64,000 bases of DNA from a virus: IMG/VR virus record IMGVR_UViG_3300033977_000098, positions 1 to 64,000 of that record. One strand, written 5' to 3'. Within the stretch, counting starts at the first letter, position 1. Every line of letters starts with the position of its first letter. The notes under the pieces were generated by a model, which was given only the letters and a program-made list of their open reading frames with translations, did not search any database and was not told the origin of the DNA. A program made the translations under genes and the position numbers. Shown here piece by piece: positions 13,052-35,253 of this stretch.

Positions 13052-14596
13052 CTAACTCGAACCAATCCCCGTAAGTACCCCGAGGCCGAACGGGATGTAG
13101 TGCTGCAACGTTTCAAAGGCGTACACCCCGACCTGGTGCTGCAAACGGACATACGGCCAGCGGATCGAGAAGTGGTCCTCAAGCGTTGCAATGCGCCGCA
13201 CCGCCGGGATGGCGTTGCCAGCCGCCGGATAAGGGTTGTTGATAAGATCGGCAAGGATCACGCCCTGGGGAATCCAGGGGTGGGTCTGCACGTCGAGCTG
13301 CTTCATCTGCCCCGGCCCGTACTTCGAGCGGTAGGCCACGGCAAACGTGCCGCCCACGACGCGGCCGGCCGTATCTTGCTCCAGGAAGACCCGCATCACG
13401 TTGTTGGCGACGCCGGCCCCCAGAACCTTCTTCGAGAAGGCGTCGATCAGCGTGCCCCCGAGCCAGAACTTGTCGGGCGTGATCTTGTAGTTCAACCAGA
13501 AGTAGTCCATCATTGCTTCGATTTCGACGATGGTGCCGTCGCCGTTCGCGGTCATGTTAGCGCCGCCCAAGTCTTTCCAGTAGGACGGCTTGGTGGCGCT
13601 GGCATAAGTCGCTGCCCAAGCGAACAGGCCGGTGAAGTCCAGGCTGTTGGCCGAGCAGTCGTTGGCCAGAAGGCTGGTGTGGTTCGGCGCGTCCGCCGCC
13701 TGATTGGTCGTAGTCGGCGTGGTGGTGACGGTGAGCGTCGGCGCAGAAGTCTGCGCGTAGAAGTAGCACTGGGAGATAGGCAGCGCGCTTGACCCGGAGC
13801 CTGTCCCGATGAACCAGGCGTAACCCAAGGCGCCAGCCACGGGCGTGACGGAGACCGTGCAGGATGGGCTCCCACTGCTGGCGAGCTGGGTGCTAGCCAC
13901 GCCCGTGGAGAGAGCCGACGTCCCGCCGTTGATCGTGTCCGTCGAGCCATCCGCGTTCTGGCGCGTGTACGGCAATGCCACGCCGGTCGCACTGCACATC
14001 ACGACGCCCCAACCCGTCAGTGCCACGCAATACGCGGTAACATACTGGCTTTGCAGGGCGGTGGTGGTGCCGCCGGTGGCGTTCGGGGTCAGCGTGGGGG
14101 TGGGTCCGGACCCCAACTGAAATCCATTGCCCCCACTGCCATCATTGCCGAATAGGATAGCCCGCTCCTCATCGTTCAAGAGCGCGTTGAGCAGCGAGAC
14201 TTGGGCCAGGCCGATGTTGTCCTCGAACCCCAAGCCCATTTGCTGCGCAGCGAAGCTGACTTGAGTGTCCTTGCCGAGGAACTTGTAGTTCGCTGCGTAG
14301 TTCTTCTCGGTGATCTGCATGACCGCGTTGCGGTTCCCTTCTGAGAGCATGGGATAGCCGCCTTGGTCTATGGCCGTCACCGCTTTCCAGTTCACCGCCT
14401 GGCCTCCGATAATCATGCCGTTGAAGGTGGGCTGATAGCGGGGGATGCTCGCCAACAGCGGGTAGATGACGGGGTAAATCGTCTTCGCGGTCGGCTCCAG
14501 GTAGTAGAAGTTCAGGCCGGTAACGCTGGAAATTCCGGTCGTGGTCGCATCCTTGCGCAGCGTTTGGATGGTCTTCAAGACATCTTCGAGTTGCAT
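13052..14596 (-). CDS. Major capsid protein, HK97 fold with inserted domain
   Basis: 514 residues from ATG 14596 (AAGGAG, 6 nt). N-terminal features (VNWKAVTAID, EGNRNAVMQITEKNY) and the C-terminal part (DKFWLGGTLIDAF and PAVRRIATLEDHFSIRWPYVR) fit HK97-type shells. Between ~150 and 310 lies a Thr/Ser/Gly-rich beta insertion (for example TVSVTPVAGALGYAWFIG) resembling an Ig/FnIII-like repeat, probably a surface decoration fused to the capsid subunit. No cleavable N-terminal delta domain is evident. The scaffold seems to be supplied by the preceding gene. Confidence 0.85.
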   Translation of the reverse strand: MQLEDVLKTIQTLRKDATTTGISSVTGLNFYYLEPTAKTIYPVIYPLLASIPRYQPTFNGMIIGGQAVNWKAVTAIDQGGYPMLSEGNRNAVMQITEKNYAANYKFLGKDTQVSFAAQQMGLGFEDNIGLAQVSLLNALLNDEERAILFGNDGSGGNGFQLGSGPTPTLTPNATGGTTTALQSQYVTAYCVALTGWGVVMCSATGVALPYTRQNADGSTDTINGGTSALSTGVASTQLASSGSPSCTVSVTPVAGALGYAWFIGTGSGSSALPISQCYFYAQTSAPTLTVTTTPTTTNQAADAPNHTSLLANDCSANSLDFTGLFAWAATYASATKPSYWKDLGGANMTANGDGTIVEIEAMMDYFWLNYKITPDKFWLGGTLIDAFSKKVLGAGVANNVMRVFLEQDTAGRVVGGTFAVAYRSKYGPGQMKQLDVQTHPWIPQGVILADLINNPYPAAGNAIPAVRRIATLEDHFSIRWPYVRLQHQVGVYAFETLQHYIPFGLGVLTGIGSS

Positions 14597-14686: not shown

Positions 14687-17224
14687 TTACCGCCCGAGCA
14701 GAGCCGCCGCCGGACTGTTCGGCGCCATCAGATGTGCGGGAACAGGCCCGGCCTTGATGAGCCGCGCGAGCTTCAGTTTGGCGTCGATATCGCCCTGCGT
14801 GAGTCCTTTCACAACGTCGTCCTTCGTGGGCTGTGCCGCGTTGGCACCTGGCGGCACTGCGCCCGTGTCGTTTTCCTTCGGCCCGGCAGGGTGCGTGACG
14901 GGCGGCGCCGCCTTGACCAGAACTTGTGTGCGATCACCGATCCCGGGCGCCGTACCGCCCGTATTCTCGGGCTCGCCGTACATGGCGATGAAGATTTTGT
15001 TCATGTCTTCCAAGCTCTGCTCGCGCGATTTGGCCAGCTTTTCGTCGAGCAGCTTCACCACGTCTTCCAGAGTGAACGCTTTGTCATTCGGATGCGCCTG
15101 GCCCGGATATGCGCCCTGGGTGCCGCCGCCGACCGAAGTCGGGGCCGGACCTGCGCCCGCGACATCGACGCCGCTGATCGTCTTGCTCGCATCGACGCTG
15201 GCACTCGCGCTCGCGCTCTCCGAAACGCTGGCGCTGCCCACGGCCTTCAAGACGCGATTAATGATGCCAGTGCAGCCGTCCATGTGACCCTTGGCCAACG
15301 CGACCGCCCGGGAATGGTGCGCCTTGTGCATCGTACCCAGCACTCGCAGGAGATCGCCAGCACTGCGCGCCTTAGCCAATTCTTCCTGTGCCACTTTTTC
15401 AAGCTGTTCGAATTCTTCCATGGTTTTGTTCTCCTTTGCGGCCAGTGCGGCCTTTTCTGCCTGAAGTGCTTCCAGTTCGCGCGTTTCCAGTTCGACTAAA
15501 CTCGTCATGCAGCCGATGGACTTATCGAGGAGCGCGGCCACATCTTCCGGATTGTCGCCCTCTTCTGCCGCCGCTGCCTTCAGAAACTCGACGGTGTCGT
15601 GGACCTCAGCAAGCTGCTCGGCTGTCCATTCGGCGGCCTTGCTCATGTCGGGCTCCATGAGGAATTGATACGCCAGGGCGATCTTCTTGGCTTCAGCGGA
15701 AACCTCAATCCCGAACTTCTTGGCGGCCGCCCGAATACGCGCCAGCACCTTCGACTCTTGCTCGGAAGGAATGCCTTTATGCTGTCCCCAGCGCGCCAAG
15801 GCGTTCCGCACGTGCGCGGCATCGTGAATCGGATACTTCCACGTCGCGATGTCGTCGGGGTCCCCGACATAGGCGAAGTCAGAGGCGTGCAGGTCTTTCC
15901 CACCCTTCCGTTTCGTCTTGCCCGCTTTGGTGAGTGCTTCCCAGGCTTTGAGTGCGGCGGTTTCCGGGAGCGGCTTTTCGAGAGCCACGCTGGCTGGGTC
16001 GCGCAAGTCCGTCTTGCAGCATTCCGCCTGCGCCGTGGCAAGTGACGTGTCGCTCAATTCTTTTCCGCACTTCGCGCAGTAAACGGCTTCGCGCTTTCTT
16101 ACCTTAGCGATGAGCGCCTCGACGCGCGCCAAGTCCATGCCGACAGCTTCAGGGGCCATGTGAGCCCCCACGATTGCCGCTAAATCGGCTTTGCCAACTT
16201 CTTCATAGGTCTGCCGGACCTCGATGGGATCTCCGAAGGTGATCTCGCCATCCTTGCCCATCTTGTAAGGGATTTTGTAGGTCTTGCTGTCGCAGTCCAC
16301 ATAGACTTCGGCGTCCGTGAAGTCGCGCATCCAGCAATACTTACCGCTAGGCGCCCCCATGTCCATGCCCGACCGTGGGTTGTACTTGTCGCTCACCGCG
16401 TCGCGCAGCACGCGCTCTTTCTGTTCGTGGGTCAACTCTTCAGCCTTGATGAATTCAGCTTTCAGTGCTGCTTTGATGCCCGCAGCGGCGCATTTGGGGC
16501 ACATGGTTTCGCTGCCCACGGCCTTGAACGTCTTGCCGCATTTGGAGCATTTCGTATCGCCGGTGGGCGCAGGCTGAATTGTGCCGTCAGGTCCGACCGT
16601 AACGCCGCTTCCTGGAGTTTGTCCGTAGGGCGGAGGGACGACAGGCTTCGCTCCTTCCTCGGGCACCGGGGGGAGGCCCCCAACGCTAGCGACTTGCGCC
16701 TTCTTGAATTCGCGCTGTTCGCTCATGCCATTCGCCTTGACCAATTCGAAGCGCGCTTCCTTGAGACAAGGCGAGTCCACAAGAGAGATTTCGCCGGGCT
16801 TTGCCGTGTACCAGGTGTATTCGCGGGTTTGTTTCGTGGCCGGATCGGTGTACGGCGCGCGCCAAGTCTTCACGTAATTGCCGCCCTGAGAGAAGCCAGT
16901 GTAAACACCTTCCATCACCTTCTTCCAGGCGTCGTCGTCCACGACCTTGAAGCCCATGGCGATCTGTCTATTGGCATCGCGGAAGTCAATGGATTTCCCC
17001 ACTCCTGCGGCTTTGAGCTGATGCATTTCCCGCAAGGGCGCGATGGACTTTCCATCCGTGGCCTTACTAAATTCTTCATTCATGTCTTTGTAGTAGGGTA
17101 CGGTGGAGGTGTAGTGGAGAACCTCATCATCGCGGTCGGGCCGTTCGCCAGTCACGACGCCATAGACAGTGCGCGTCGCTTCGTCTACTTTGGCAAGCGG
17201 CCAGAATTTTCGGAAGTTCAACAT
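14687..17224 (-). CDS. XkdF-like prohead protease fused to zinc ribbons and scaffold
   Basis: 845 residues. Residues 1-165 form the XkdF-like protease domain (LREMHQ with the candidate catalytic His, GFSQGGNYVK, and EISLVDSPC). Residues ~220-250 hold a zinc ribbon (CSKCGKTF...CPKC), and ~385-405 a second (CAKCGKEL...CC). A DUF6582-like segment follows (ASDFAYVGDPDDIATW, YPIHDAAHVRNALARWGQ). The last ~300 residues are charged helix, Ser/Ala-rich and scaffold-like. The single chain would place protease and scaffold inside the procapsid. A TTGACG-17-TAACTT promoter precedes it. Confidence 0.8.
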   Translation of the reverse strand: MLNFRKFWPLAKVDEATRTVYGVVTGERPDRDDEVLHYTSTVPYYKDMNEEFSKATDGKSIAPLREMHQLKAAGVGKSIDFRDANRQIAMGFKVVDDDAWKKVMEGVYTGFSQGGNYVKTWRAPYTDPATKQTREYTWYTAKPGEISLVDSPCLKEARFELVKANGMSEQREFKKAQVASVGGLPPVPEEGAKPVVPPPYGQTPGSGVTVGPDGTIQPAPTGDTKCSKCGKTFKAVGSETMCPKCAAAGIKAALKAEFIKAEELTHEQKERVLRDAVSDKYNPRSGMDMGAPSGKYCWMRDFTDAEVYVDCDSKTYKIPYKMGKDGEITFGDPIEVRQTYEEVGKADLAAIVGAHMAPEAVGMDLARVEALIAKVRKREAVYCAKCGKELSDTSLATAQAECCKTDLRDPASVALEKPLPETAALKAWEALTKAGKTKRKGGKDLHASDFAYVGDPDDIATWKYPIHDAAHVRNALARWGQHKGIPSEQESKVLARIRAAAKKFGIEVSAEAKKIALAYQFLMEPDMSKAAEWTAEQLAEVHDTVEFLKAAAAEEGDNPEDVAALLDKSIGCMTSLVELETRELEALQAEKAALAAKENKTMEEFEQLEKVAQEELAKARSAGDLLRVLGTMHKAHHSRAVALAKGHMDGCTGIINRVLKAVGSASVSESASASASVDASKTISGVDVAGAGPAPTSVGGGTQGAYPGQAHPNDKAFTLEDVVKLLDEKLAKSREQSLEDMNKIFIAMYGEPENTGGTAPGIGDRTQVLVKAAPPVTHPAGPKENDTGAVPPGANAAQPTKDDVVKGLTQGDIDAKLKLARLIKAGPVPAHLMAPNSPAAALLGR

Positions 17225-17508: not shown

Positions 17509-17658
17509 TCAAAACGTAGCCGGCACGACCTTGAACGCTCCCCCGTGAAACTGAACTGGCAGGCGCTCGAACCACAGCGCCGGGTCCGTTTGTCGCGTGA
17601 CCACGCGATAATCGCTCGGACCTGCGGCCTCACCCGGCTTCGGGCGCTTTTTGTCCAA
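17509..17658 (-). CDS. Small hypothetical protein after MuF, TTG start
   Basis: A 49-residue frame (MDKKRPKPGEAAGPSDYRV...) from TTG 17658, overlapping the last 29 nt of the MuF gene in a different frame and preceded directly by TGA. The C-terminal part (TDPALWFERLPVQF, HGGAFKVVPATF) has a strongly protein-like composition unlike the other frames. No SD is obvious, so translation may be coupled to MuF. No family recognised. Confidence 0.5.
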   Translation of the reverse strand: MDKKRPKPGEAAGPSDYRVVTRQTDPALWFERLPVQFHGGAFKVVPATF

Positions 17659-20600
17659 TCATGCTGGCAGGGCCCTGCTCGATTACGCCCGCGTCATTGA
17701 TGAACACATGCGCGCCACGAATGGTCACCCAGCCCTTGCCCAAGGCTTTGTTGAAACTGACCGCAATGACGGCGCAATCGCAGTTCTTGACCACAATACC
17801 GCCTATGTTGTATATATGAGAAGTGGTGGATGCGTCAAAAGCCCAGCCATGAAATCGCCCAACTTGAGTCTGAAGAATTCGCGCCGCCTTAAAGAACGGT
17901 GGTCCCGGTTCACAGCAGAGCAGCGCAAGATCATCCTGGCACCCGCTCACGCCGCTGCCAGCGTTGCCAACAGGGCTCGCATGAAAGAATTTTGGCGCAC
18001 TGCTACGCTCAGCCAACGTCGAAAGATGCTTGAACCTGCCCACGCTGCTGCGCGCGGTCGCAAAGAACGCCTGGAATCCAAGTTGGCACGTGCCGCAACT
18101 CGCTACATGCGCGCCGTCGGGATAGGCCCCCGAGAGCGGGCATTTGCAAAGATGCTCAAGTTCGCTGGAATCAAGTTCCGACAGCAAACTCCTTGCGGGC
18201 CTTACAGCTTGGACTTCACCATAGACGAAAGTTTCGTCGCCGTGGAAATACGAACGGGGAGCAGCAACAAACGAGTAGCCAAAGCGGCCGCGCAGAGACT
18301 CAAAAGCGTCCTGGATCAATGGCACCTGTTCGAGGTTCGGTTCCATAGCGGGCATCCTCGCCGATTCCATGCGCATGTCATAAAGCAACTCGTCACCTTT
18401 CTTCAGTTCGTGCGCAAACAAGAAACCACGGCAGGTCAACATTGGGTGGTTAGGCCCGATGGTCAGTTTTATCCGTTCCGAGCCTATGGGCCGCGTAGGC
18501 CAGCCGTGATCACCAGGGAGCAATTGGCGCTCGTCGAGCGCCTCTTTAAGCTTAACGTCTCGTTGCGGAACATCCGTCGTGAAACTGGAGTAGCTCGGCG
18601 ACGACTGCCCGCAGTTCTCAGCCAACTCCAGCTCCAGCGCAATCGCGGGGCCGTGGTATGGCGCACCAAGCATTTGCTGAAGTCTGCCATAGGGCGCAAA
18701 AACTGAGCCTTCAAATACCGCGTTGGGATGTGCCGGGGGGGCCTCTACGTCCACGCCAGGGAAGGTTTCGCCTAGCGAAACGACCTCTCCATTCGCATCC
18801 TTACAGTCATCGCACGTGTTGGGCTCAACCGAAGTCTGCCATTGAAGTTTTTTTACTACCCCGCTGTCTTTCCAGACATCATAGTTCGCGTGGCATTGGG
18901 CGCGTGCGACCTCGGTGCGGGCAATCATCTCGGCGCGGGAATCAGAGAACGCGCCCGCCTCGCGGATTTGCTCGATAAGGTCGGGCATTGGAGTTTCTTT
19001 GCCGAAAGCATCCGTCACGATGCTGCGGAGATCGTCCCGCGTGGTATCACTGATGGCCCACTTCGCGTCGGCATTCTCGACGAACGTCCCATCTTCCAGT
19101 TTGTGCATTCCCACCAGTTCGGCCGCGCGTTCATCCGCCCAATCTTGTGCGCCTTGGTTCAGGGCAGAGATCATGTCGTCGTCCGTCAAGTCCAGTTCAG
19201 CTACACCTTTCCCGATGCCTGCGAACGCGGCGTGTCGCAGCGGGGGCGCTGCCTCCATTGGGATCTCGCCGAAAAGTTCCTGAAGCGCCTCGAAAATCGC
19301 ATCTGCGATGTTGATGGCGTCATCGTCCTGCTTAGCCAAATCGAACTCCTCGATTTTCTTTTTTCCATTCTTAAAGGGGATAGTGCGGATGCGCTCGAAA
19401 TCATCCGGGTCCGCCTGGCGCGCCCGATAACTGGAATCTGTTTCCTGAATCTCCGTTTTGAAGTCATGGTCCTTCAGCCATGCGCGCACATCTTCTTTTG
19501 TCCACGCATCCTTCGGCATGAAGAGGATCGACTGCGCCTCTGTCCGCCCACCTTCCGGACCCTTTTCGGAAGGCTTGCGAACGCCCACCGTTGCCGAAAT
19601 GCGCCGCGCCGCTTTCCCGAAGCCATCCACAATCAGGGCGTGCACCATCTCATCATGGACCTTCAGCAAGCGGTCAGCCTTTTCCTTGGCGCGGTCGCGC
19701 TGCCGGCGAAAAACTTTCTTGATAATTTCTGCCAGCTCGCGCTCCGCTTCCTGGAGGGCGGGCGTGGAATGCGAGGGGTCGATTTTGATGTTGGCCGCCT
19801 TCGCTAGTGGCAGGGAGCGGCTCTTAGTGGAAACGCTTGGTGCTTTGTCAATTAACTCGTCGCACGTCCCGCACTTGAATTGGCGCACTTGCTCATCGGC
19901 TGGCCCGAAATCGTTGCAGCAGCCCAGCTCCTTTGAGACACCACCTTTGACATAGACGGTTTTGCAATCGGCGTCTTTGACGGCACCTGGGAACTCCATG
20001 TACCCGGCGTCTTCTTCAGGCTTGCGAGAATCGCGTTTGAGAATCGTAAGCGTCTGCGCGCCACCAGTGGCTTTCCAATACGGTTGGAAATTCTTGACCG
20101 CCTCGATGAATTCCGGCGTCCACTCGCCCAGGAACTGGGTGGCTTTGTCGTCCACAAACTCGTGCGCCATGACCGGCTTGACGTTCGTGATGTCCAGTAC
20201 GTAGGCGCTCGCCTTGTTTTGTTGCAGCGCCACCCACACGGGTCCGAAGTCTGTCCGCGCTGTGAAGATCAAGATATCAAAATCCTTAGACAACTCCCGC
20301 AGGGCGTCCACGGCGCCGTCGATAAACTCCGTGATCGCCGTCGGGTCGTCGGGGTCGCCGACTTGAATGGTGGAATCGAAGTCGAGGCAGAGAAGGGGCT
20401 TTTGCAGCAAATCGGTTAGCGCCTTGACGAGTTCGCGCTCATAGGCGGCTGTCGGCATTTGCTGCAAGCCTTCATGTTTCACATAAACATTAGCATTGCT
20501 CAACTCCGTTGGCAAATCCTCTTCCACGATAAGGCTGTCCGACGCGATGGCAATGCCATCGGCCCGCACCAATAAGTTGGCGAGGTTGGTAAGTGTGTTC

Positions 20601-20797
20601 CGCACATCAGCGCTCACGTTGCCCTGCGCCGCAAACAGCGCCGCCTTGCGTAACGCTTCAGGGTCCGTGCTGTACCCCTGGTCGCAGAACTTCTGTAGTT
20701 CGCTGGGCCCCTCGCCAACCGCCGCGCAGAGGTCAGACCAGCCTCTACCTGAAGCCAGCGGACCTACGTAGTCAGTGCCGAACAATGATATACTCAT
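17630..20797 (-). CDS. MuF head protein with HAD domain and split by an intein
   Basis: 1055 residues from ATG 20797 (GAGGTGG upstream). Residues ~135-220 carry HAD-type motifs (LLCLDFDSTI with DxD, IFTAR, FVDDKA), a phosphatase-like domain. A cysteine-rich patch follows near residue 300 (CCNDF, CGTCDELI). Residues ~590-690 are the MuF/SPP1 gp7 domain (ARTEVARAQCHANYDVWK, CDDCKDANGE, PPAHPN). The MuF motif HPNCDC is interrupted after N692 by a 313-residue intein and resumes at C1006. The C-terminus repeats GWVTIRGAHVFI seen in the next gene upstream. MuF proteins sit inside the head near the portal and are often injected. Confidence 0.82.
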   Translation of the reverse strand: MSISLFGTDYVGPLASGRGWSDLCAAVGEGPSELQKFCDQGYSTDPEALRKAALFAAQGNVSADVRNTLTNLANLLVRADGIAIASDSLIVEEDLPTELSNANVYVKHEGLQQMPTAAYERELVKALTDLLQKPLLCLDFDSTIQVGDPDDPTAITEFIDGAVDALRELSKDFDILIFTARTDFGPVWVALQQNKASAYVLDITNVKPVMAHEFVDDKATQFLGEWTPEFIEAVKNFQPYWKATGGAQTLTILKRDSRKPEEDAGYMEFPGAVKDADCKTVYVKGGVSKELGCCNDFGPADEQVRQFKCGTCDELIDKAPSVSTKSRSLPLAKAANIKIDPSHSTPALQEAERELAEIIKKVFRRQRDRAKEKADRLLKVHDEMVHALIVDGFGKAARRISATVGVRKPSEKGPEGGRTEAQSILFMPKDAWTKEDVRAWLKDHDFKTEIQETDSSYRARQADPDDFERIRTIPFKNGKKKIEEFDLAKQDDDAINIADAIFEALQELFGEIPMEAAPPLRHAAFAGIGKGVAELDLTDDDMISALNQGAQDWADERAAELVGMHKLEDGTFVENADAKWAISDTTRDDLRSIVTDAFGKETPMPDLIEQIREAGAFSDSRAEMIARTEVARAQCHANYDVWKDSGVVKKLQWQTSVEPNTCDDCKDANGEVVSLGETFPGVDVEAPPAHPNAVFEGSVFAPYGRLQQMLGAPYHGPAIALELELAENCGQSSPSYSSFTTDVPQRDVKLKEALDERQLLPGDHGWPTRPIGSERIKLTIGPNHPMLTCRGFLFAHELKKGDELLYDMRMESARMPAMEPNLEQVPLIQDAFESLRGRFGYSFVAAPRSYFHGDETFVYGEVQAVRPARSLLSELDSSELEHLCKCPLSGAYPDGAHVASCGTCQLGFQAFFATARSSVGRFKHLSTLAERSSAPKFFHASPVGNAGSGVSGCQDDLALLCCEPGPPFFKAARILQTQVGRFHGWAFDASTTSHIYNIGGIVVKNCDCAVIAVSFNKALGKGWVTIRGAHVFINDAGVIEQGPASMIGQKAPEAG
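17783..18721 (-). mobile_element. Ala1 intein in the MuF protein
   Basis: 313 residues inserted between PPAHPN and CDCAV. The intein begins AVFEGSVFAPYG (Ala1 rather than Cys/Ser). It has a block B with TIGPNHPMLT and HELKKGDELL, and ends with block F/G FDASTTSHIYNIGGIVVKN followed by Cys+1. Ala1 with a nucleophilic +1 Cys is the class 2 layout, in which the C-extein cysteine attacks directly. No LAGLIDADG motif occurs in the intein frame. Its centre reads as low-complexity sequence because the opposite strand carries an endonuclease-like frame. Confidence 0.82.
17849..18706 (+). CDS. Vsr/DUF559-like endonuclease antisense inside the MuF intein
   Basis: A 285-residue frame from ATG 17849 (an alternative ATG lies at 17816), entirely inside the intein coding region but on the opposite strand. 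The centre has the restriction-like core of DUF559/Vsr proteins: ERAFAKMLKFAGIKF, RQQTPCGPYSLDF and ESFVAVEI, followed by QRLKSVLDQWHLFEVRF. Upstream is a repeated basic segment (RKIILAPAHAAA and RRKMLEPAHAAA), and downstream a helix-turn-helix-like stretch (VSLRNIRRETGVARRRL). It would be the homing enzyme of the intein, encoded antisense. No strong SD precedes either start. Confidence 0.68.
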   Translation: MKSPNLSLKNSRRLKERWSRFTAEQRKIILAPAHAAASVANRARMKEFWRTATLSQRRKMLEPAHAAARGRKERLESKLARAATRYMRAVGIGPRERAFAKMLKFAGIKFRQQTPCGPYSLDFTIDESFVAVEIRTGSSNKRVAKAAAQRLKSVLDQWHLFEVRFHSGHPRRFHAHVIKQLVTFLQFVRKQETTAGQHWVVRPDGQFYPFRAYGPRRPAVITREQLALVERLFKLNVSLRNIRRETGVARRRLPAVLSQLQLQRNRGAVVWRTKHLLKSAIGRKN

Positions 20798-20918
20798 CGG
20801 TATCCACCTCATCGACCTTACTGGACAGCGGTTTGGTAAGCTCGTCGTTCTGCGACGGAGCCCGAAGCTGGTAGCGTATGGTTCGCTTTGGGAGTGTCTC
20901 TGTGACCATCGTCTCCAT
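20772..20918 (-). CDS. Small acidic protein overlapping MuF start
   Basis: 48 residues (METMVTETLPKRTIRYQL...DTDEYIIVRH) in a different frame from the HTH frame above and the MuF gene below, overlapping the MuF start by 26 nt. The composition is clearly protein-like with an acidic C-terminal half. It shows that the HTH frame is probably not the translated one across 20.8-20.9 kb. A GGAG lies close to the second ATG. No family recognised. Confidence 0.55.
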   Translation of the reverse strand: METMVTETLPKRTIRYQLRAPSQNDELTKPLSSKVDEVDTDEYIIVRH

Positions 20919-21409
20919 CCTCTTGGATGCCTCGGCAGGCCATAAACCTGGAAGATGCGAACCACAGTTATTTCCGTGCGCCTAATACGCTTAGCAACCT
21001 GCTTCAACGTGAGACCCGCCATGTAGAGCTGGTGCATCGGCCGCACGACCTCGATGGGCCACAACGTTGTGCGGCGGCGATTCAGGCGCGGACCGCGCGA
21101 GCCAGTCGGACGTCTCTCTACGCCGAATCGCCGCAATGCATACAAAATCGCAGTATGATGGACGCCATACCGGTCCGCAAGCTGGTGAAGCGTCCAACCT
21201 TTCCGGTAAAGCTGCGCGCATTCCTGTAACGGCACTGTGGCGTGAAACGGGCGTATGGGAAAGCCGTTGCGCGCGAAGAGCTGACGGACCCGTTCGCGGG
21301 ACAGGCCGATGCGCCGCGCCACTTCCGCGACCGTGAGCCCTGCGACGTGAAGCCGATGCAGCTTTCGGATGTGCTCTGTGGTCCATCTTCGAGCATGTTC
21401 ACTTCGCAT
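20798..21409 (-). CDS. Triple helix-turn-helix protein, open in frame into MuF
   Basis: From ATG 21409 (GGAG at 8 nt) the frame encodes three successive helix-turn-helix units: GLTVAEVARRIGLSRERVR, GWTLHQLADRYGVHHTAIL and GLTLKQVAKRIRRTEITVV, each followed by a short basic linker. The start overlaps the stop of the upstream gene by 11 nt. No stop codon occurs before the MuF ATG in the same frame, so a fusion is possible, but the last ~40 codons look non-coding and a different small gene occupies that stretch. The stop codon may have been lost, or the gene was inserted here. Confidence 0.6.
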
Positions 21410-22823
21410 CGGGATTCTCCAAAAAGCTACCATCATCAAGTTTGTGTAGAGCAAACGGCGATGTGATTTTGCTGATAAATGCCCGAAGCTGCTTGAGGTT
21501 TTTGAGCGGGGTCATCTGCCCTATTCGGAACGCCCCCATGCCTTCGTGCACGAATATCTTTTCACCCCCCCCTCGGTTGTCGATGAGTACGCAATAGCCT
21601 TTCGCACGATTCTGCGTCAGGTCTTCTAGCTTTCTCTCTCGGCATTCTGGCCGCATGTTGATGCGCACGTTCGTCAGCTTCTTGCCCAACAGCGTCTTGA
21701 CCTCAAGCCCGACCTTACCGCCCCCGGCGCGCACGTAGATATCGAGGGGGGAATTGTCTGGTGTGCGCTCACCGCCTACCGCCTCCGCAACGCGCTGTTC
21801 GTTCGCATCCGCCTTGCGCTGGTGCGCCTTCAAGGCCGGCTTGAAGTTCTTAAGCGCGGCCGTGCACTTGTCGGCAACCAGCGAGCCATCTGGCTTGAGC
21901 TGGTGGCCTACCATGCTGTGGGGGCCGTGCGTGATGCGCCCAGCCTCGTCGATAAACACGTGGGCACCGCGGATCGTGACCCAGCCTTTACTAACTGGTT
22001 GCGGCGCCGCGCCCTCTGTCCATCGTCCGTGCTCATCACGCGGCTGGTCCGGCGAATACTTGCTCAAGCTTTCCCACGCTGTTAACGCCTTGTTCACGCC
22101 GAAGCGTGCGCCAATAGCGTCGCGCCGGCCGATGAGCGCGTTCGCGTATTTCCCGGACAGCCCAGCTTCGTTCACTAGCTCGCGGATCGTGTCGTCATCA
22201 AGGGTGGCGACGAGGTGTTGCGCCTGGGCTTGCAATTCGTCATCAGTGAACCCCGCAAATATTGGTGCCGCATCAGGCGCCGTTTCCCGGTCCCGCATTG
22301 AATCAATCTCCGGGACTATTATTGCTGAAACGTCCTTATCCTGGCCTTGGGCTCGGAACGCGAACGTGCTTCCATTGTCGATGCGCAGATCGCGGCCATC
22401 AACACGTAGGATATTGCGGCCGCTGCTGCCGATGACATCGTGGTTAGCAAGGAGACAATCTGTAAGAAACCCGTCGCGCACGTCGGGGCTTTCGGCCAGT
22501 TCGTCACTGTCCAACTGTTCGCCTTCGACCATCTTGCCCGCGATGCCCAGGCCGCTCGCCTCGCCCCACCCGGCGTGGCCGGAAACGAGCTGCTTCTCTG
22601 GGACCGGCAATCCTACCGTGCGGTAAACCAGCGTCGCCAATAGTTCGGCGCGAGATTGCTCAGGGTCAAGCTGAGGGAACTTGACGTACCACTGCTGTCC
22701 GCTCTCGTCCTCGTAGACGCCGCCAGGATTTGAGCCTTTGTGCTGGCTGACGTGCCACCAGGAAGCAATGGACTCAGGTGCGCTCGCCTTGGTGAGCGTT
22801 CCGGCAATGAGAGAAGCGTCCAA
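21399..22823 (-). CDS. HipA-like kinase domain fused to PD-(D/E)XK-like domain
   Basis: 474 residues from TTG 22823. Residues ~25-200 resemble phage HipA/PI-kinase-like proteins: NPGGVYEDESGQQWYVKFP, RAELLATLVYRTVGLPVPE, DGFLTDCLLANHDVIG and RDLRIDNGSTFAFR. Then comes SKYSPDQPRDEHGRWTEG and the module GWVTIRGAHVFIDEAGRI. Residues ~355-400 contain LDIYV...VGLEVKTLL, a possible D..ExK nuclease signature. The C-terminus ends HKLDDGSFLENPDAK, matching a MuF segment (HKLEDGTFVENADAK). The arrangement recalls capsid-associated effector proteins. Activity is inferred. Confidence 0.62.
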   Translation of the reverse strand: MDASLIAGTLTKASAPESIASWWHVSQHKGSNPGGVYEDESGQQWYVKFPQLDPEQSRAELLATLVYRTVGLPVPEKQLVSGHAGWGEASGLGIAGKMVEGEQLDSDELAESPDVRDGFLTDCLLANHDVIGSSGRNILRVDGRDLRIDNGSTFAFRAQGQDKDVSAIIVPEIDSMRDRETAPDAAPIFAGFTDDELQAQAQHLVATLDDDTIRELVNEAGLSGKYANALIGRRDAIGARFGVNKALTAWESLSKYSPDQPRDEHGRWTEGAAPQPVSKGWVTIRGAHVFIDEAGRITHGPHSMVGHQLKPDGSLVADKCTAALKNFKPALKAHQRKADANEQRVAEAVGGERTPDNSPLDIYVRAGGGKVGLEVKTLLGKKLTNVRINMRPECRERKLEDLTQNRAKGYCVLIDNRGGGEKIFVHEGMGAFRIGQMTPLKNLKQLRAFISKITSPFALHKLDDGSFLENPDAK

Positions 22824-22825
22824 AT

Positions 22826-23224
22826 CTAGTGCCCCGACTTCCTCACAAGTGCCGCCGTGTCTTCAGATGCCGTGCCGGTTATGCCAACCGTGAGCAACGC
22901 GGCAGGGTTGACAACAAATTCCCAATCCACTAGGCCCGTGCCGGTCATTCCAAGACTCCCCCATACGAACTCGCCCAAGTCAATGCCGGAGGCCGCTAGC
23001 GGCTGGAAGCCGTCAAAAACGTAATTGTCGTCGTTTTGATTGGTTGGGCCAGCATCCAGCACCGAGGCAAGGATGGATTTACTATTTGCCAGGTTCGTGA
23101 CGCGCACAACTTTGTTGAACGCACGGATGGATGGCAACGCCACGAACGGCGTGGTCGTGTCGATGAGCCGTCCCGTGAACGTCTTCCCTCCCACGTTACC
23201 TTTTCTCGTTGCAATCACGTGCAT
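22826..23224 (-). CDS. RlpA-like double-psi beta-barrel protein
   Basis: 132 residues starting at ATG 23224, which shares its A with the stop of the upstream gene (TGATG). The centre matches the double-psi barrel pattern: LPSIRAFNKVVRVTNLAN, SILASVLDAGP and GIDLGEFVWGSLGM with the VLDAGP aspartate typical of the fold. RlpA-type domains bind or cut peptidoglycan glycan strands. In this position it may be a virion lysin or simply a structural barrel. No signal peptide. Confidence 0.6.
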   Translation of the reverse strand: MHVIATRKGNVGGKTFTGRLIDTTTPFVALPSIRAFNKVVRVTNLANSKSILASVLDAGPTNQNDDNYVFDGFQPLAASGIDLGEFVWGSLGMTGTGLVDWEFVVNPAALLTVGITGTASEDTAALVRKSGH

Positions 23225-24672
23225 CAGAGCACCTCCGTTTGACGAATCAGAATAGTTACCCGCTGGACGGGATAGCTGAAGCCTGACGGCCGCATGAATC
23301 CCACTTCCTGCTTTCCGATGTTCTCCACCTTGAACTCACCGTGCGTCACAACCTCGCCCTGGTCTCGGTCTGCCAGCGCGTCCAGTGCAATGCCTTTCAC
23401 TGGCCCCTGCGTCTTCAGGATGTATTCGTAATTGAGCGCCTTGCCCTTCTCGGCAAAGTGCAACGCCATCTTATCCCGGAGCGAGAATGAAACGAGCCGG
23501 TCGAGAGTGAGCGTATCCCCGGCTTTTAGAAGTTCCAAGTCTTTTATCGGCTGGTCGCCGTGGAGCCCGCGGTAGAGCGTGATGTCGCGCTCGGGCGCCT
23601 TGCGGATGTACTCGACGAACCGCTTTGCGGCGCGTGCGGCGATCTCGGCCGACGCCTGAACGGGCTGCCCATCTAGCCGCTTGTGCTCGTCTTTGTAGTC
23701 AAACCGATAGCGGGCATCAGCGGCGCGTGCCAGCAGCCAGCCCGCCAAGCCTTCGTCGCCTCTGTGGATGTATTGCTGGGAAGCATCGCTGACGGCCCGG
23801 CTCCATTGCACGACGGGCGAATAAGCACATGCCGCTTCAATGTCCTTTTGCAATTCTGGGTCTTCTTGGCTCCGCTCAGCCAGCTCGGCACTTACGGCTG
23901 CCCGCTCCTCGCGGGACCAGCTCGGATCCATCTCGTGAATCAGATAGCCGCCCTCCCACTCCGGGCTTTCTTTCGCGTACTTGGAAAGTTCACGATCGTA
24001 ATAATTTTTATGACGTTTGCCAAGCGCCTCTTGGAATGCCAGCACTTTGCCATTCTTTTGGCACAGTTTTGCCATAGTTATTTTTGCGAGATGCTCGCGC
24101 AACACGGCAAGAACCTCATGGTCTGCCGTCTCGGCGCCGCGCACGTCCAACAGTAAGTCGCTTAGGCTCCTGACGGGAGCGAGCACGACGCGCTCGGACT
24201 CCATGTCGCCGTCCCAAGGCGCACCACTGACCCGGTGTCCCACGTAGTAGCGGGTGGAATAAAAATCACCGAGCCATGAATCAACTGCCGCGATGATGCC
24301 GCTCTCCTCCCACGTTTCGCGGATCGCCGCGTGCTGCGGGGATTCGTCGTCTTGGAGATGTCCCTTGGGAAAAGTGTTGACATAGCCGCCGTACTGGTCG
24401 GCTGGGGATACCAGCCAGACCCGGCCATCCGGCTCGAGAACGACAATGCCCGCTGAATCGAATGTAGCGATAGGCTCTTCGATGCCGTCGCTGATAAGTT
24501 GCGCGTAATCGGGTTCGATGACGCTGAGGAAAGGAATGCCGTTCAGCTCGATGGGGGCATGGTCATCCGGCGTCCACGACATGACGGCGCCGGCAATGAT
24601 TGCCTTGAGCTGAGCGTACAGGGCCCGCCGCACGGCGTGGATTTGCTCAACGATGGCAGGACTCTCATTCAC
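23224..24672 (-). CDS. Nudix hydrolase - ADP-ribosyltransferase fusion
   Basis: 482 residues. Residues ~70-190 contain a Nudix box: FPKGHLQDDESPQHAAIRE continuing into TWEESGI, fitting GX5EX7REUXEEXGU. The C-terminal ~170 residues match R-S-E class ADP-ribosyltransferases: ITLYRGLHGD (Arg), RLVSFSLRDKMALHFA (Ser motif) and DQGEVVTHGEF (Q/E-x-E region). The middle is helical. Nudix enzymes hydrolyse NAD-type pyrophosphates and ARTs use NAD to modify proteins or nucleic acids, so one chain could attach and remove or compete for the same nucleotide. It lies next to the portal among capsid genes, so packaging and injection are plausible. Confidence 0.75.
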   Translation of the reverse strand: MNESPAIVEQIHAVRRALYAQLKAIIAGAVMSWTPDDHAPIELNGIPFLSVIEPDYAQLISDGIEEPIATFDSAGIVVLEPDGRVWLVSPADQYGGYVNTFPKGHLQDDESPQHAAIRETWEESGIIAAVDSWLGDFYSTRYYVGHRVSGAPWDGDMESERVVLAPVRSLSDLLLDVRGAETADHEVLAVLREHLAKITMAKLCQKNGKVLAFQEALGKRHKNYYDRELSKYAKESPEWEGGYLIHEMDPSWSREERAAVSAELAERSQEDPELQKDIEAACAYSPVVQWSRAVSDASQQYIHRGDEGLAGWLLARAADARYRFDYKDEHKRLDGQPVQASAEIAARAAKRFVEYIRKAPERDITLYRGLHGDQPIKDLELLKAGDTLTLDRLVSFSLRDKMALHFAEKGKALNYEYILKTQGPVKGIALDALADRDQGEVVTHGEFKVENIGKQEVGFMRPSGFSYPVQRVTILIRQTEVL

Positions 24673-25147: not shown

Positions 25148-28100
25148 CTAATCCTCCACCCTAAACTTGCGCTGTCCGGCTTTACTCAGCTCATAAACGT
25201 CTTCGACCTTTTGGAGTCGGGATAAGGCGCAGCGGAAGCAACCATCCTTGTACTCAGGATGCGTGGTGCATTCGATGCGACTGTGCCCGTTGCCCCCTTT
25301 CACTTTCTTTGTCTTAGGTTGGCCTCTGGGCGCTGGCCCACCAGCCTCGGGTGGCGCTTCCTCGCCCGGCAGGCCTTTCCCCTTTGCAGTTTGCAGCTCC
25401 AGGGCCCGGGCATGAGCTTGTTCGCCACGCGCTTGCAACTTTGCTTCTTGCTCGTCGGCGTGGTCCTGCATGTTGCCGACTAGCATTTTGCCTGCCGGTC
25501 CTGCCGCCGAACCCACCGCACCTGGTTGGCCAATCACGCCCGCTGTGAGCGGCACGAAACCGTTCTGAGTGAGCACACCCGGCTCATCCGCTTCTTTGAA
25601 AGGCAGCGGGTCGAGTCCCAGGCCATCGCGCACCTCATTGATCGTCTTGACCCCGCTGCTTACGTAAACCTTGTCCACGTTGGCTTGGATTTCGGGATCA
25701 ACTTCCTTGTTTTGTACCCACGCGAACTCGATATCGCTGAACTGCATCTTGCGCTGGATGATGAGATTGATGAGGTCGGCAATCCAGCGCATCTTGGGCG
25801 CCAGCCCTTCCTCCTCCGCCGTCTGTACGTTCGTCTGAGCCGTGGCGCGGTTCATCATGCGCATCAGCGCTTGTGAGGGTACGCCGAAGCAATAGCACAC
25901 GATCTGCCACAACCACTCGAACAGCGGGTCTTTGAGCAAGCGCTCTTTCGGGAAGATGACGTTTGGGCGCGCGTTCTGGCCCGTGCCGTAACCGGGAAGG
26001 AAGGTCAGGCGCCGGCGCTTTGCCAAGTCGCCTGCCAGAATTGAATCAAACCACTCCTGCACTTCACGGATGCGCTGGATGGGAATGTCCTGCGGCAAGA
26101 AGCACATCGCCTCCGGGATGTTGCCCGAGGTGTTGCCGCACCACGCTGCCTTACCGTTGCGTCGAACGTAAAGGAAAGTGTGGGGCACCTCAAAACAAGA
26201 GACTTCGCCGTGATACTCGATTTCCTGGACCGAAGAGATATGGCTCTTCTTACGCTGGCCCCGATACACCGTCCATCCGCCACGCGACCACCCGCTCGGA
26301 CGACCTGGGAAACGATATATACCTGCGGGACGACAGGAGACCGTCGGTGCATAACCAGCCTTCTGCAAAATCTCCGTAAGTTGATCGGCCAATCTCCGGC
26401 TGGAGGTGAAAGCGCTTTGATTCACCCTGCCATCCCCGCTGGCTTGGCCATCACCGGCGGAGTAAAATCTCCAAAAGATTTCCAACTGGCGCGGCGTTGC
26501 TTCCCGGATGTCCTCGGGGATAAATTTTTCGTGAGCATGGCCGAACCTTCGTAAGAATGGACGCATCGTTGCTGCGCAGACTTCCAACTGCTTTTCGCCC
26601 GCCGCTACTGTTCCAAATATCCGCGTAAGCAATTCCAGGTAAAGAGCGCGCGAACCACGCTGATCTTCTGGCTGTGCGATGCCGATTACCCCGTTGGATT
26701 TACAAGAGCCCTCAGCCAAGTACATCCCCATAAAGGCGCAATAGTCATCGCCAGACATGCGAACGGCCCGAGCTTTTCTGTGTCCATAAACAGACCTGCG
26801 CTGCCATCCCGTGCGCAGAGCGTGGTAGGTTTCGTGTGCTGTCTGCATGGAGATGCCACAGGCTTGCCCAATGGCAGCGAAACTCTTTCCTTGGCGGCGC
26901 AGGGATAAAATCAGTTCATCACGGTGCGCCGCTTGGGCCATCGCCATACGATGTTCTGATTCACCGAAAGTCTTCTCGACAATCTCTGTTCCCTCCCACA
27001 CCGAGGTTTGCGGGATGCAAGTTTGACCCGTATAGTGCGCTGCCAAGTCACGCGCCAGCAACTCAATTTCCCGTTTCGGTTGCGGCTTCCCTAATCGAAG
27101 TGAGCGTGGCATTGAATCCACTAACATACGGTGACCGGGCATGACCAGTAGGTCCAATGACCGGGCCCCAAAATGAAGCATTGTGCCCTCGTACCAATCG
27201 CAATGGCGTGCCGTTGCTTTTTGCCATTCGAAGTTTCCGGTGTTGATCTGACGAGTTGCCAGCTCGTCGGCACCATCAATTTCATGATACCTTAACCAAC
27301 CGCGTCGAGTCAGGTACTCCGTATCCTCTGAATAGCAGTACGCATCCAAGGTGAACTTCTGCGCGTTCAGCCCCGTAGCAATCGTAATCATGATTTGCTC
27401 GACCGGGGGAAAGCCGTACCGCTTGTGGTTTCGGCGATTGCGCATCGAGTAAATCAAATCGTCCACCGTCATGTCGAAGGCCGGCAAGCCATAGAGAATT
27501 TCCTGATAGGCCACTTGCGGCGCGGGGGGTGTGGTCCCTTGATCGGTCAACATGCGGGCGATGAGTGCCCCGTCGATGGTACGCAAGCTGGCGATCCGCT
27601 TTTGTTGGTCCTTCTCAAGATAGATTGCGGAGGCATCCAGGACGAGCATGTCCTCGATTAAAGGCCGCAGCCAATCGGACCACGGATGTTCGCCGTCGGG
27701 ATAGGCGAAGAATTTATTGAGCTGGTCAATTCGCGTGTCACTGTCGCTGCGCTTCTGATAATCCCCTTGCTTCTCACTCTTCTTGCGCACCAGGCGGAAT
27801 TCGTACTCTGCCGTGCAGAGCCGGTCTTTGACCGTCTCAATCACGCAGCGCAGCAAGTCCCAGGAGTCCGCAAAGGCGCGCAGAACCGGATAGCCGACGC
27901 CGGCGCCCTCAGCCTCAGTCTTGGGCGTCCAGATGATGTTGGCACCGGGCGGGATCTCGTACTGCCGAATTGCCTGCCCGGCAGGGGCCATGGGCTTGAT
28001 CGGCTGGAGAGCTGACTGGCCGCACCAGGCCGGCTTGCCGTTCCTCCGCGTATAGACAACACCCGCAGGCACGTTCGGGCACCAGACTTTACCCCTATAA

Positions 28101-29392: not shown

Positions 29393-29718
29393 TAGCGCTC
29401 CTTCTCCGCGTGCTCTTTGACAACCTCGGCAGGGGGCGCGGGAAGCGGTACCGACCACAGTTCACTTGGAACCAGCGGCGGCTTAAACCAGTATGCCTGA
29501 CATGCCTTGCACCAACAAACGATTGCTCCTGGTTTGCGCTGAGTCTCGGCAGGCCATTCGAGCTGGGGCTCCCACTGAATGCGATTGCCGTCGCGGTTGC
29601 CGCAGGCCGGGCATTTCTGATTCGGCTCGATGCGCGCCACTTTGTCGTGCGCGCCGCCTGGACGCGCCAGCCAAGTCACGTACCAGCGCGCGAGAGCGGC
29701 CTTGAGGCGGGCGAGCAT
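29392..29718 (-). CDS. Zinc-ribbon protein upstream of portal
   Basis: 108 residues. The N-terminal helix (MLARLKAALARWYVTWLA) is followed by CPACGNRDGNRI and CWCKACQAYW, a zinc ribbon, then a proline-rich linker. The stop overlaps the portal ATG (TAATG). A TATAGC sequence lies just before its start but no clear -35 is seen. The 176 nt upstream hold no gene. Role unknown. Confidence 0.6.
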   Translation of the reverse strand: MLARLKAALARWYVTWLARPGGAHDKVARIEPNQKCPACGNRDGNRIQWEPQLEWPAETQRKPGAIVCWCKACQAYWFKPPLVPSELWSVPLPAPPAEVVKEHAEKER

Positions 29719-32300: not shown

Positions 32301-32465
32301 TCATCTGTCCATCATCTCCGCAAGCAATCGAATCCGATTGGCAAGAACCAAGATTGCCGCTTGGTTGTTGAGTTCGGGAGTCGCGGTAAGCAGCCCCCAC
32401 GACTCCTTAAGCATCGTCTGGACATGGAGAAAGTCCTCGACTTCCTGCTCGACTTCCTGCTTCAT
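32301..32465 (-). CDS. Small helical protein coupled to terminase
   Basis: 54 residues from ATG 32465, overlapping the terminase stop (ATGA) with AAGGGA upstream. A single amphipathic helix (KQEVEQEVEDFLHVQTML) and a second helix rich in Leu/Ile/Arg. It may bind another packaging protein. No family recognised. Confidence 0.6.
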   Translation of the reverse strand: MKQEVEQEVEDFLHVQTMLKESWGLLTATPELNNQAAILVLANRIRLLAEMMDR

Positions 32466-35242: not shown

Positions 35243-35253
35243 CACAGCCTCGC

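What the first reader, a model, noticed from the sequence alone, without database searches (positions are those of the whole stretch)
23224..24672. Nudix and ADP-ribosyltransferase domains in one capsid-operon protein
A clear Nudix box is joined to a C-terminal R-S-E type ART with LYRGL, SFSLR and QGE elements. Phage ARTs can modify host proteins, or attach RNA through NAD caps (T4 ModB), and Nudix enzymes remove such caps or hydrolyse ADP-ribose. Having both in one chain, beside portal and MuF, suggests an injected enzyme that controls its own NAD chemistry.
Basis: partly seen in the sequence, partly recalled or inferred. Interest (0 to 1): 0.82.

Follow-up and report, generated by a model that had tools for sequence, protein, structure and literature searches.

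The report
Phage-head Nudix–ADP-ribosyltransferase fusion enzyme
A phage capsid-operon gene joins a Nudix hydrolase (cuts nucleotide diphosphate links) to an ADP-ribosyltransferase (tags targets using NAD), and relatives of this Nudix in dozens of other phages almost always sit beside or inside such a transferase, so the two probably travel in the virus particle and work on the infected cell together.

Summary
On the MINUS strand, window 24672→23224 encodes 482 aa: an intact Nudix box (residues 104-126; PF00293 4e-13) followed by an R-S-E ADP-ribosyltransferase (R368, S395-F-S397, Q438-x-E440). Pfam misses the ART, but three tests support it: all three known family members hit the phage RNA-polymerase ADP-ribosylase PHROG; E440 aligns with glutamate in 45/45 phage ARTs; the AlphaFold2 ART model (pLDDT 85) matches NAD-bound ART structures (E~1e-8).

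The main new result is a pairing. In 73 distinct loci holding this Nudix family, an ART is fused to it in 22 and neighbouring on the same strand in 34; 10 of the 17 without one are cut contigs. In portal-selected control loci without the Nudix, 10 of 63 have an ART (Fisher p~5e-13). Yersinia phage fHe-Yen8-01 annotates both its ART and its Nudix as particle-associated.

So the 'injected NAD-chemistry enzyme' reading is supported for anatomy and likely co-packaging. The chemistry is untested; the Nudix resembles Ap4A hydrolases more than ADP-ribose pyrophosphatases. Virion-packaged ARTs and Nudix domains are known; this repeatedly fused pair seems undescribed. New variant of a known kind.

The parts
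23224..24672 (-). Nudix-ART fusion gene, 482 aa, GTG start preceded by GGGGGCGGA; overlaps the upstream ORF by 8 nt; its TGA overlaps the ATG of the next gene (TGATG)
   Evidence: ORF and sequence
24073..24465 (-). Nudix domain, residues about 70-200
   Evidence: PF00293 4.4e-13; AlphaFold2 pLDDT about 90; Foldseek best match Ap4A hydrolase 3i7u 1.6e-7
24295..24363 (-). Nudix box, residues 104-126 (E119, E122, E123 are the family-wide conserved acidic residues)
23950..24072 (-). linker, residues 201-241, absent in L009; in L010 this place holds a second ART-like copy and a KTHEGALRAWE repeat
   Evidence: alignment
23227..23949 (-). R-S-E ADP-ribosyltransferase domain, residues 242-482
   Evidence: AlphaFold2 pLDDT 85, pTM 0.81; Foldseek to NAD-bound ART 4xzj 1.3e-8 and VIP2 1.4e-7; PHROG_832
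23569..23571 (-). R368 (strand-1 arginine, LYRGL)
   Evidence: invariant in the trio, R in 40/45 ARTs
23482..23490 (-). S395-F-S397 (S-x-S motif)
   Evidence: S397 in 39/45 ARTs
23353..23361 (-). Q438-G-E440 (Q-x-E, catalytic Glu)
   Evidence: E440 in 45/45; position 438 is E in 42/45, Q only in window, L009 and L010
25148..29458 (-). portal protein gene, upstream (two intein-like inserts)
   Evidence: PHROG_2662 1.6e-44; matches L009/L010 portals in three blocks
21399..22823 (-). HipA-like kinase plus PD-(D/E)XK-like protein, co-operonic cargo candidate; a similar kinase is fused to the Nudix in L016
   Evidence: HipA_2 only 0.26; syntenic in L009 and L010; L016 by eye
17630..21454 (-). MuF minor head protein with HAD-like domain
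   Evidence: PF04233 1e-11
14687..17224 (-). prohead-protease-like polyprotein
   Evidence: PHROG_9427 head maturation protease 1.2e-5
13052..14596 (-). probable major capsid protein (inferred from position)
   Evidence: PHROG_13692 3e-68, unknown function; 76% identical in L097
32462..35245 (-). terminase large subunit with intein
   Evidence: PF03237 1e-15, LAGLIDADG_3

Best explanation
This is a bifunctional, probably virion-packaged effector made with the capsid proteins and delivered with the DNA. Its C-terminal R-S-E ART uses NAD+ to ADP-ribosylate a host macromolecule. Its N-terminal Nudix hydrolase cuts an NDP-X substrate generated by, or related to, that reaction: the pyrophosphate of attached or free ADP-ribose, or a related dinucleotide, alarmone or RNA-cap type molecule. 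Both work in the first minutes of infection. Shown: the two domains, intact catalytic motifs, capsid-operon position, and a strong, repeatedly fused genomic pairing of this Nudix family with ARTs. Annotated but not verified here: particle association in one relative. Inferred: packaging of this protein, ejection, enzymatic activity, targets and chemical coupling.
For: Both domains with intact motifs and predicted folds. Nudix-selected loci: ART fused in 22 and neighbouring in 34 of 73, always same strand; portal-selected control: ART in 10 of 63 loci without this Nudix (Fisher p~5e-13). The profile-independent Pfam search gives ART in 27 of 50 of these records but Acb1 in 5 of 50, and 8 of 10 profile-found ARTs tested pass Pfam. 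Fused and adjacent states interchange at least 7 times on the Nudix tree, and the window's fusion uses another ART subfamily, so fusion arose more than once. Phage fHe-Yen8-01 annotates ART, the small gene between and the Nudix as particle-associated. Order terminase-portal-Nudix-ART-kinase/nuclease-MuF-protease-capsid is kept in L009's contig, and portal-Nudix-ART-kinase/nuclease-MuF-protease in L010. Literature independently argues that phage ARTs and Nudix domains are head-packaged (PMC9503650).
Against: No proteomics for this phage. Pfam does not recognise the ART, and a profile of the trio alone finds no solved ART. The same Nudix family is also fused to a kinase, an SNF2 helicase, topoisomerase IB and Acb1, so linkage may reflect packaging, not chemistry. 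Rows are related, so counts are not independent events.
Confidence: 0.6

Rival explanations
1. Cargo bundle without chemical coupling: Nudix and ART are two unrelated early weapons (for example ART for host takeover, Nudix against a defence nucleotide signal or dinucleoside alarmone), joined only because both are delivered through the head.
For: The Nudix family also shares chains or operons with Acb1 (anti-CBASS), a HipA-like kinase, SNF2 and topoisomerase IB. Neighbouring capsid-operon proteins carry HAD, 2H, HipA-like and nuclease-like modules. The Nudix is Ap4A-hydrolase-like.
Against: Among these partners ART is far more frequent (56 of 73 loci; Pfam 27 of 50 records versus Acb1 5 of 50) than in portal-matched loci (10 of 63).
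Confidence: 0.3
2. Counter-defence against NAD-derived immune signals: the Nudix destroys ADP-ribose-type messengers and the ART modifies the defence protein or consumes NAD.
For: PMC9503650 argues that phage Nudix domains mainly counter soluble ADPr derivatives. Acb1 is fused in the same chains in L037 and L042. One Nudix homologue lies beside what look like Zorya-type genes in a faecal contig (L005, by eye).
Against: No defence target tested. Conserved Tyr and top matches point to Ap4A-type Nudix enzymes rather than ADP-ribose pyrophosphatases.
Confidence: 0.25
3. Structural protein with decayed enzymes: a minor head or portal-associated protein whose domains have lost activity.
For: Capsid-operon position; the wider Nudix family departs from the canonical box (GX5L, K for R in many members).
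Against: In the window trio all Nudix-box and R-S-E residues are conserved while overall identity is only 44-51%, so the sites are under purifying selection.
Confidence: 0.07
4. The C-terminal domain is not an ART; the motifs are chance.
For: No Pfam hit; trio profile finds no solved ART; direct profile comparison gives E=0.0012 but only 19% probability.
Against: Same PHROG hit in all three members; co-linear R, S, E; all 50 listed best fold matches are ARTs.
Confidence: 0.05

Closest known systems
Virion-associated Nudix + ART gene pair of phages fHe-Yen8-01, Dolphis, ST4, Mecenats66 and Touem01 (public records)
   Same: Orthologous Nudix (35-40% identity over residues 29-174) two genes downstream of a giant protein with a C-terminal R-S-E ART; particle-associated in fHe-Yen8-01
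   Different: Separate genes; ART at the end of a 1200-2150-aa protein with E-x-E; here one 482-aa chain with a Q-x-E ART
T4 Alt (head-packaged R-S-E ART, Alt/VIP2 clade)
   Same: R-S-E ART; all three members' best PHROG hit is RNA polymerase ADP-ribosylase
   Different: Q-x-E; no sequence match to Alt at usual thresholds; Alt has no Nudix domain (own knowledge)
Phage NudE-type Nudix domains fused to MuF, portal or protease (PMC9503650)
   Same: Nudix in head-gene context, proposed to be packaged
   Different: The readable text reports no fusion to an R-S-E ART in phages; the only ART-Nudix fusion it mentions is KptA-Nudix in Bodo saltans virus
Polyvalent proteins (PMC5512222)
   Same: Multidomain phage effectors thought to be injected, with ARTs as commonest modifying domain
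   Different: Their ARTs are of the H-Y-D type; this one is R-S-E and the protein is small with two enzymatic domains
Legionella SidE/SdeA (mART + phosphodiesterase in one chain, PMC5518988)
   Same: Works-like analogy only: an ART and an enzyme that cuts the ADP-ribose pyrophosphate in one polypeptide
   Different: Phosphodiesterase rather than Nudix; ubiquitin targets; no homology tested or claimed

Membership tests
Nudix hydrolase superfamily (PF00293) | Nudix box GX5EX7REUXEEXGU | tested here: met
   Residues 104-126, one hydrophobic position is Thr
Nudix hydrolase superfamily (PF00293) | Family profile and fold | tested here: met
   4.4e-13; Foldseek 1.6e-7 to 3i7u
Nudix hydrolase superfamily (PF00293) | NDP-X hydrolysis | not testable with these tools
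   needs an assay
ADP-ribose pyrophosphatase subgroup of Nudix | Closest characterised relatives are ADPR-ases | tested here: not met
   Best solved relatives are Ap4A/Ap6A hydrolases; ADP-sugar pyrophosphatases score far lower. Substrate remains unproven
ART superfamily, R-S-E clade (Alt/VIP2) | Catalytic R, S-x-S/T and E in order on the core strands | tested here: met
   R368, S395-S397, E440
ART superfamily, R-S-E clade (Alt/VIP2) | ART fold | tested here: met
   Predicted model matches Vis-NAD 1.3e-8 and VIP2 1.4e-7; caveat: distant ARTs were in the alignment
ART superfamily, R-S-E clade (Alt/VIP2) | Curated profile PF03496 | tested here: not met
   No match
ART superfamily, R-S-E clade (Alt/VIP2) | E-x-E as in arginine-specific members | tested here: not met
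   Q438-x-E440, also Q-x-E in L009 and L010
T4 ModB-type RNAylating ART | Transfers NAD-capped RNA to protein | not testable with these tools
   no ModB comparison made; PHROG hit is to RNA polymerase ADP-ribosylases
Head-packaged phage effector | Present in virions | not testable with these tools
   Only annotation in relative fHe-Yen8-01
Head-packaged phage effector | Encoded among portal/MuF/capsid genes | tested here: met
Polyvalent proteins (PMC5512222) | H-Y-D (HYD2) type ART | tested here: not met
   R-S-E type

The most novel reading that the evidence does not exclude
A two-step modifier: the ART attaches ADP-ribose to a host target and the Nudix in the same chain cuts the pyrophosphate, releasing AMP and leaving phosphoribose (+212 Da) on the target. 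Host ADP-ribose erasers that recognise ADP-ribose could not remove such a mark. This would be a phage Nudix counterpart of the ART+phosphodiesterase logic of SidE. RppH-type single-domain Nudix enzymes can do this cut on ADP-ribosylated proteins whereas ADPR-ases cannot (PMC4680915), and this Nudix resembles the former group more. No direct evidence.
Probability: 0.12. Interest if true: 0.87.

Novelty: new variant of a known kind. Interest (0 to 1): 0.6.

Why it matters
Packaged ARTs and packaged Nudix domains were each known, with unclear purpose for the Nudix. Finding that one phage Nudix family is almost always tied to an ART, and has been fused to it more than once with different ART types, says the two activities are selected together. 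That turns a vague annotation into a sharp experiment: what does the Nudix do to the ART's product? Cultured phages of Pseudomonas putida carry the same pair, so it can be tested in laboratory strains.

Tried and rejected
Plain searches for full-length homologues in viral and bacterial genome collections found none; only alignment-based searches reached them. No bacterial relative of the ART half was found. Pfam on the ART half alone gave nothing credible. Profile comparison of the trio ART with other phage ARTs was weak (E 0.0012, probability 19%), so fold and residue evidence were needed. The first AlphaFold2 job gave a poor ART half. Considered a merely structural or decayed protein: rejected because catalytic residues are the conserved ones at 44-51% overall identity. 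Considered that linkage is generic to capsid operons: tested with portal-selected controls, not supported. A Fisher test inside the control set was uninformative (only 4 Nudix loci, p=0.14). Capsid-protein-selected controls were too few (2 loci). No paper on fHe-Yen8-01 proteomics was held, so its 'particle associated' labels rest on the GenBank record alone.

Full report
WHAT IS THERE. The finding lies on the minus strand. The ORF from GTG 24672 to the TGA ending at 23224 encodes 482 aa; the + strand in that frame is full of stops. The start has a GGGGGCGGA upstream and overlaps the end of an 84-aa ORF; the stop overlaps the ATG of the next gene, as in a translationally coupled operon. The record is a 74.6-kb virus contig. 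Gene order on the minus strand: terminase (with an intein), portal (two intein-like inserts), 84-aa ORF, Nudix-ART, 132-aa ORF, HipA-like kinase with a PD-(D/E)XK-like part, MuF, prohead-protease-like polyprotein, probable major capsid protein.

NUDIX HALF. PF00293 matches residues 72-141 at 4.4e-13. The box at 104-126 is canonical except Thr at one hydrophobic position. AlphaFold2 gives pLDDT about 90 for this half. Foldseek and profile searches put Ap4A/Ap6A hydrolases at or near the top (3i7u: 1.6e-7 by fold, 4.5e-13 by profile); ADP-sugar pyrophosphatases and RppH score much lower by profile (about 2e-4). Y143 is invariant in the 15-member alignment. From general knowledge, a tyrosine about 16-18 residues after the box marks dinucleoside-polyphosphate hydrolases; this is only a hint about substrate.

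ART HALF. Pfam's PF03496 does not match. Evidence that it is nevertheless an ART: (a) the three known members (window, L009, L010; 44-51% identical) keep R368, S395, S397, Q438 and E440; (b) each has PHROG_832 'RNA polymerase ADP-ribosylase' as best hit at the same profile position (3e-4, 1e-2, 3e-3); (c) in an alignment with 41 phage ARTs and a second ART-like copy of L010, R aligns in 40/45, S397 in 39/45 and E440 in 45/45, and the profile of that set matches VIP2 at 1e-23, although mostly through the other members; (d) AlphaFold2 on that alignment gives pLDDT 85, pTM 0.81 and the 50 best solved-structure matches are all ARTs, led by Vis bound to NAD (1.3e-8). R lies in a core strand, S-x-S at the end of the next, E at the start of a later one, as expected. 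Caveats: a profile of the trio alone finds no solved ART, direct profile comparison gives E=0.0012 with probability 19%, and the earlier full-length model, with only three ART rows, was poor in this half. The trio has Q-x-E where 42 of 45 aligned ARTs have E-x-E, so its acceptor may differ.

THE PAIRING. A tblastn of 50,697 phage records found the N-terminal half in seven phages. In the six whose regions were read, the Nudix gene lies two genes after a 1200-2150-aa protein; in five of those PF03496 is found at the C-terminus (in ST4 only below cut-off), and the sixth, whose giant is cut in the fetched region, ends in an aligned ART. In Yersinia phage fHe-Yen8-01 the ART protein, the small gene between and the Nudix are all annotated particle-associated. 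The Dolphis ART domain itself finds six phage records, all of which also carry the Nudix. An alignment-based scan of IMG/VR gave 80 loci. Using a Nudix profile and an ART profile iterated from those phages, 73 non-identical Nudix domains were classified: ART in the same chain 22, ART in a neighbouring gene on the same strand 34 (mostly within about 600 bp), none 17. Of the 17, 10 lie on contigs cut at or near the Nudix gene, and one is a faecal contig that looks bacterial. Independent checks: curated PF03496 finds an ART in 27 of 50 of these records against 5 of 50 for Acb1, and 8 of 10 profile-found ARTs tested pass Pfam.

CONTROL. Loci chosen only by a portal protein (80 returned, 67 non-redundant among the newly fetched ones) contain such an ART in 12, and in 10 of the 63 without this Nudix. 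Against 56 of 73 this gives Fisher p about 5e-13. Loci are related, so the number is not a true probability, but the contrast is large. The literature baseline also fits: ARTs anywhere in the genome in 30% of myoviruses and 3% of other tailed phages (PMC9503650).

EVOLUTION. On a tree of the 73 Nudix domains, fused and adjacent states need at least 7 changes. The window, L009 and L010 form a group beside L011/L012, whose Nudix is fused to a kinase-like domain instead. Because the window's ART is a different subfamily from the other fused ARTs, the combination arose at least twice. In the window's lineage the fusion and surrounding gene order are kept in L009 and L010 while the capsid protein is 76% and the Nudix-ART only 44% identical (window versus L009).

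HOW IT MOST LIKELY WORKS. Inferred: the protein is made with the head proteins, packaged, and delivered with DNA. The ART spends NAD+ to modify a host macromolecule; the Nudix cuts a pyrophosphate in a related molecule. Candidates are the attached ADP-ribose (leaving phosphoribose), free ADP-ribose, a NAD-derived or dinucleotide alarm signal, or an RNA cap. Single-domain Nudix enzymes of the RppH/NudT16 kind trim protein-bound ADP-ribose whereas Nudix ADPR-ases do not (PMC4680915). An ART and a pyrophosphate-cutting enzyme in one chain is a known logic in SidE (PMC5518988). The main rival is plain co-packaging of independent weapons, which the other partners of this Nudix (Acb1, kinase, SNF2, topoisomerase IB) make plausible.

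WHAT IS KNOWN. Iyer et al. 2022 argue that phage ARTs and Nudix domains are often head-packaged, with Nudix fused to MuF, portal or protease and ARTs fused to MuF or portal (PMC9503650). In its readable text I found no R-S-E ART-Nudix fusion in phages, only KptA-Nudix in Bodo saltans virus; its figures and supplements could not be read. The theme is therefore known; the specific, recurrent pair and the Q-x-E fusion appear to be a new variant.

Noticed in passing
window 25148-29458 (-), 32462-35245 (-), 17630-21454 (-): Inteins crowd the packaging genes: two intein-like inserts in the portal, one with a LAGLIDADG match in the terminase, and a fourth intein-like insert in MuF (PPAHPN|AVFEGS...IGGIVVKN|CDCAVIAV versus uninterrupted PPAHPNCNCAVLAV in L009), the last starting with Ala instead of Cys/Ser.
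   Followed up: partly
window 21399-22823 and 17630-21454; L009 9607-10953; L016 6783-11594: A repeated peptide K-G-W-V-T-I-x-G-A-H-V-F-I recurs in different head-operon proteins of the same phage (4 hits in 3 phages against 0 in shuffles); possibly a packaging or processing tag.
   Followed up: partly
L094 11877-19384, L095 11808-19353: Polyproteins behind a related portal are strings of enzyme-like modules (HipA-like kinase, zeta-like kinase, 2H, NadM-like HIGH nucleotidyltransferase, InPase-like, GNAT-like; by eye) separated by a repeated linker KYSEDQARDDHGRFASE, 5-6 copies by regex.
   Followed up: partly
L010 6381-8732, 9158-10822, 14145-16403: A different repeated linker, KTHEGAxxAWExR, occurs 5 times in three capsid-operon proteins (a sixth, KTHDGAVHAWE, variant by eye), including between the Nudix and a second ART-like copy.
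   Followed up: partly
L002 8701-9540, L004, L006-L008, L014, L019, L084, L086 and others: Nudix orthologues begin with a tag like KAxxKGYxRxDGTYVKPH (18 hits in 16 loci, 0 in shuffles); in L004 the same tag also starts an unrelated small protein upstream of the ART gene.
   Followed up: partly
L042 4927-10113, L037 7704-12020, L023 4926-9821: Single ORFs combining portal + Acb1 (anti-CBASS) + Nudix + ART (1728 aa), Nudix + Acb1 + ART (1438 aa) and portal + Nudix + ART (1631 aa).
   Followed up: partly
L005 2-9438 (faecal contig MT835507): A close homologue of this Nudix family (46% identity) lies beside genes that look like a Zorya-type defence system (helicase, AAA, MotA/MotB-like; by eye).
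   Followed up: no
L010 11114-13696; window 17630-21454: The MuF protein of L010 carries a 2H phosphoesterase (PF13563 9e-10) and, like the window's, a HAD-like segment (LCLDFDSTI in the window, by eye) before MuF.
   Followed up: no
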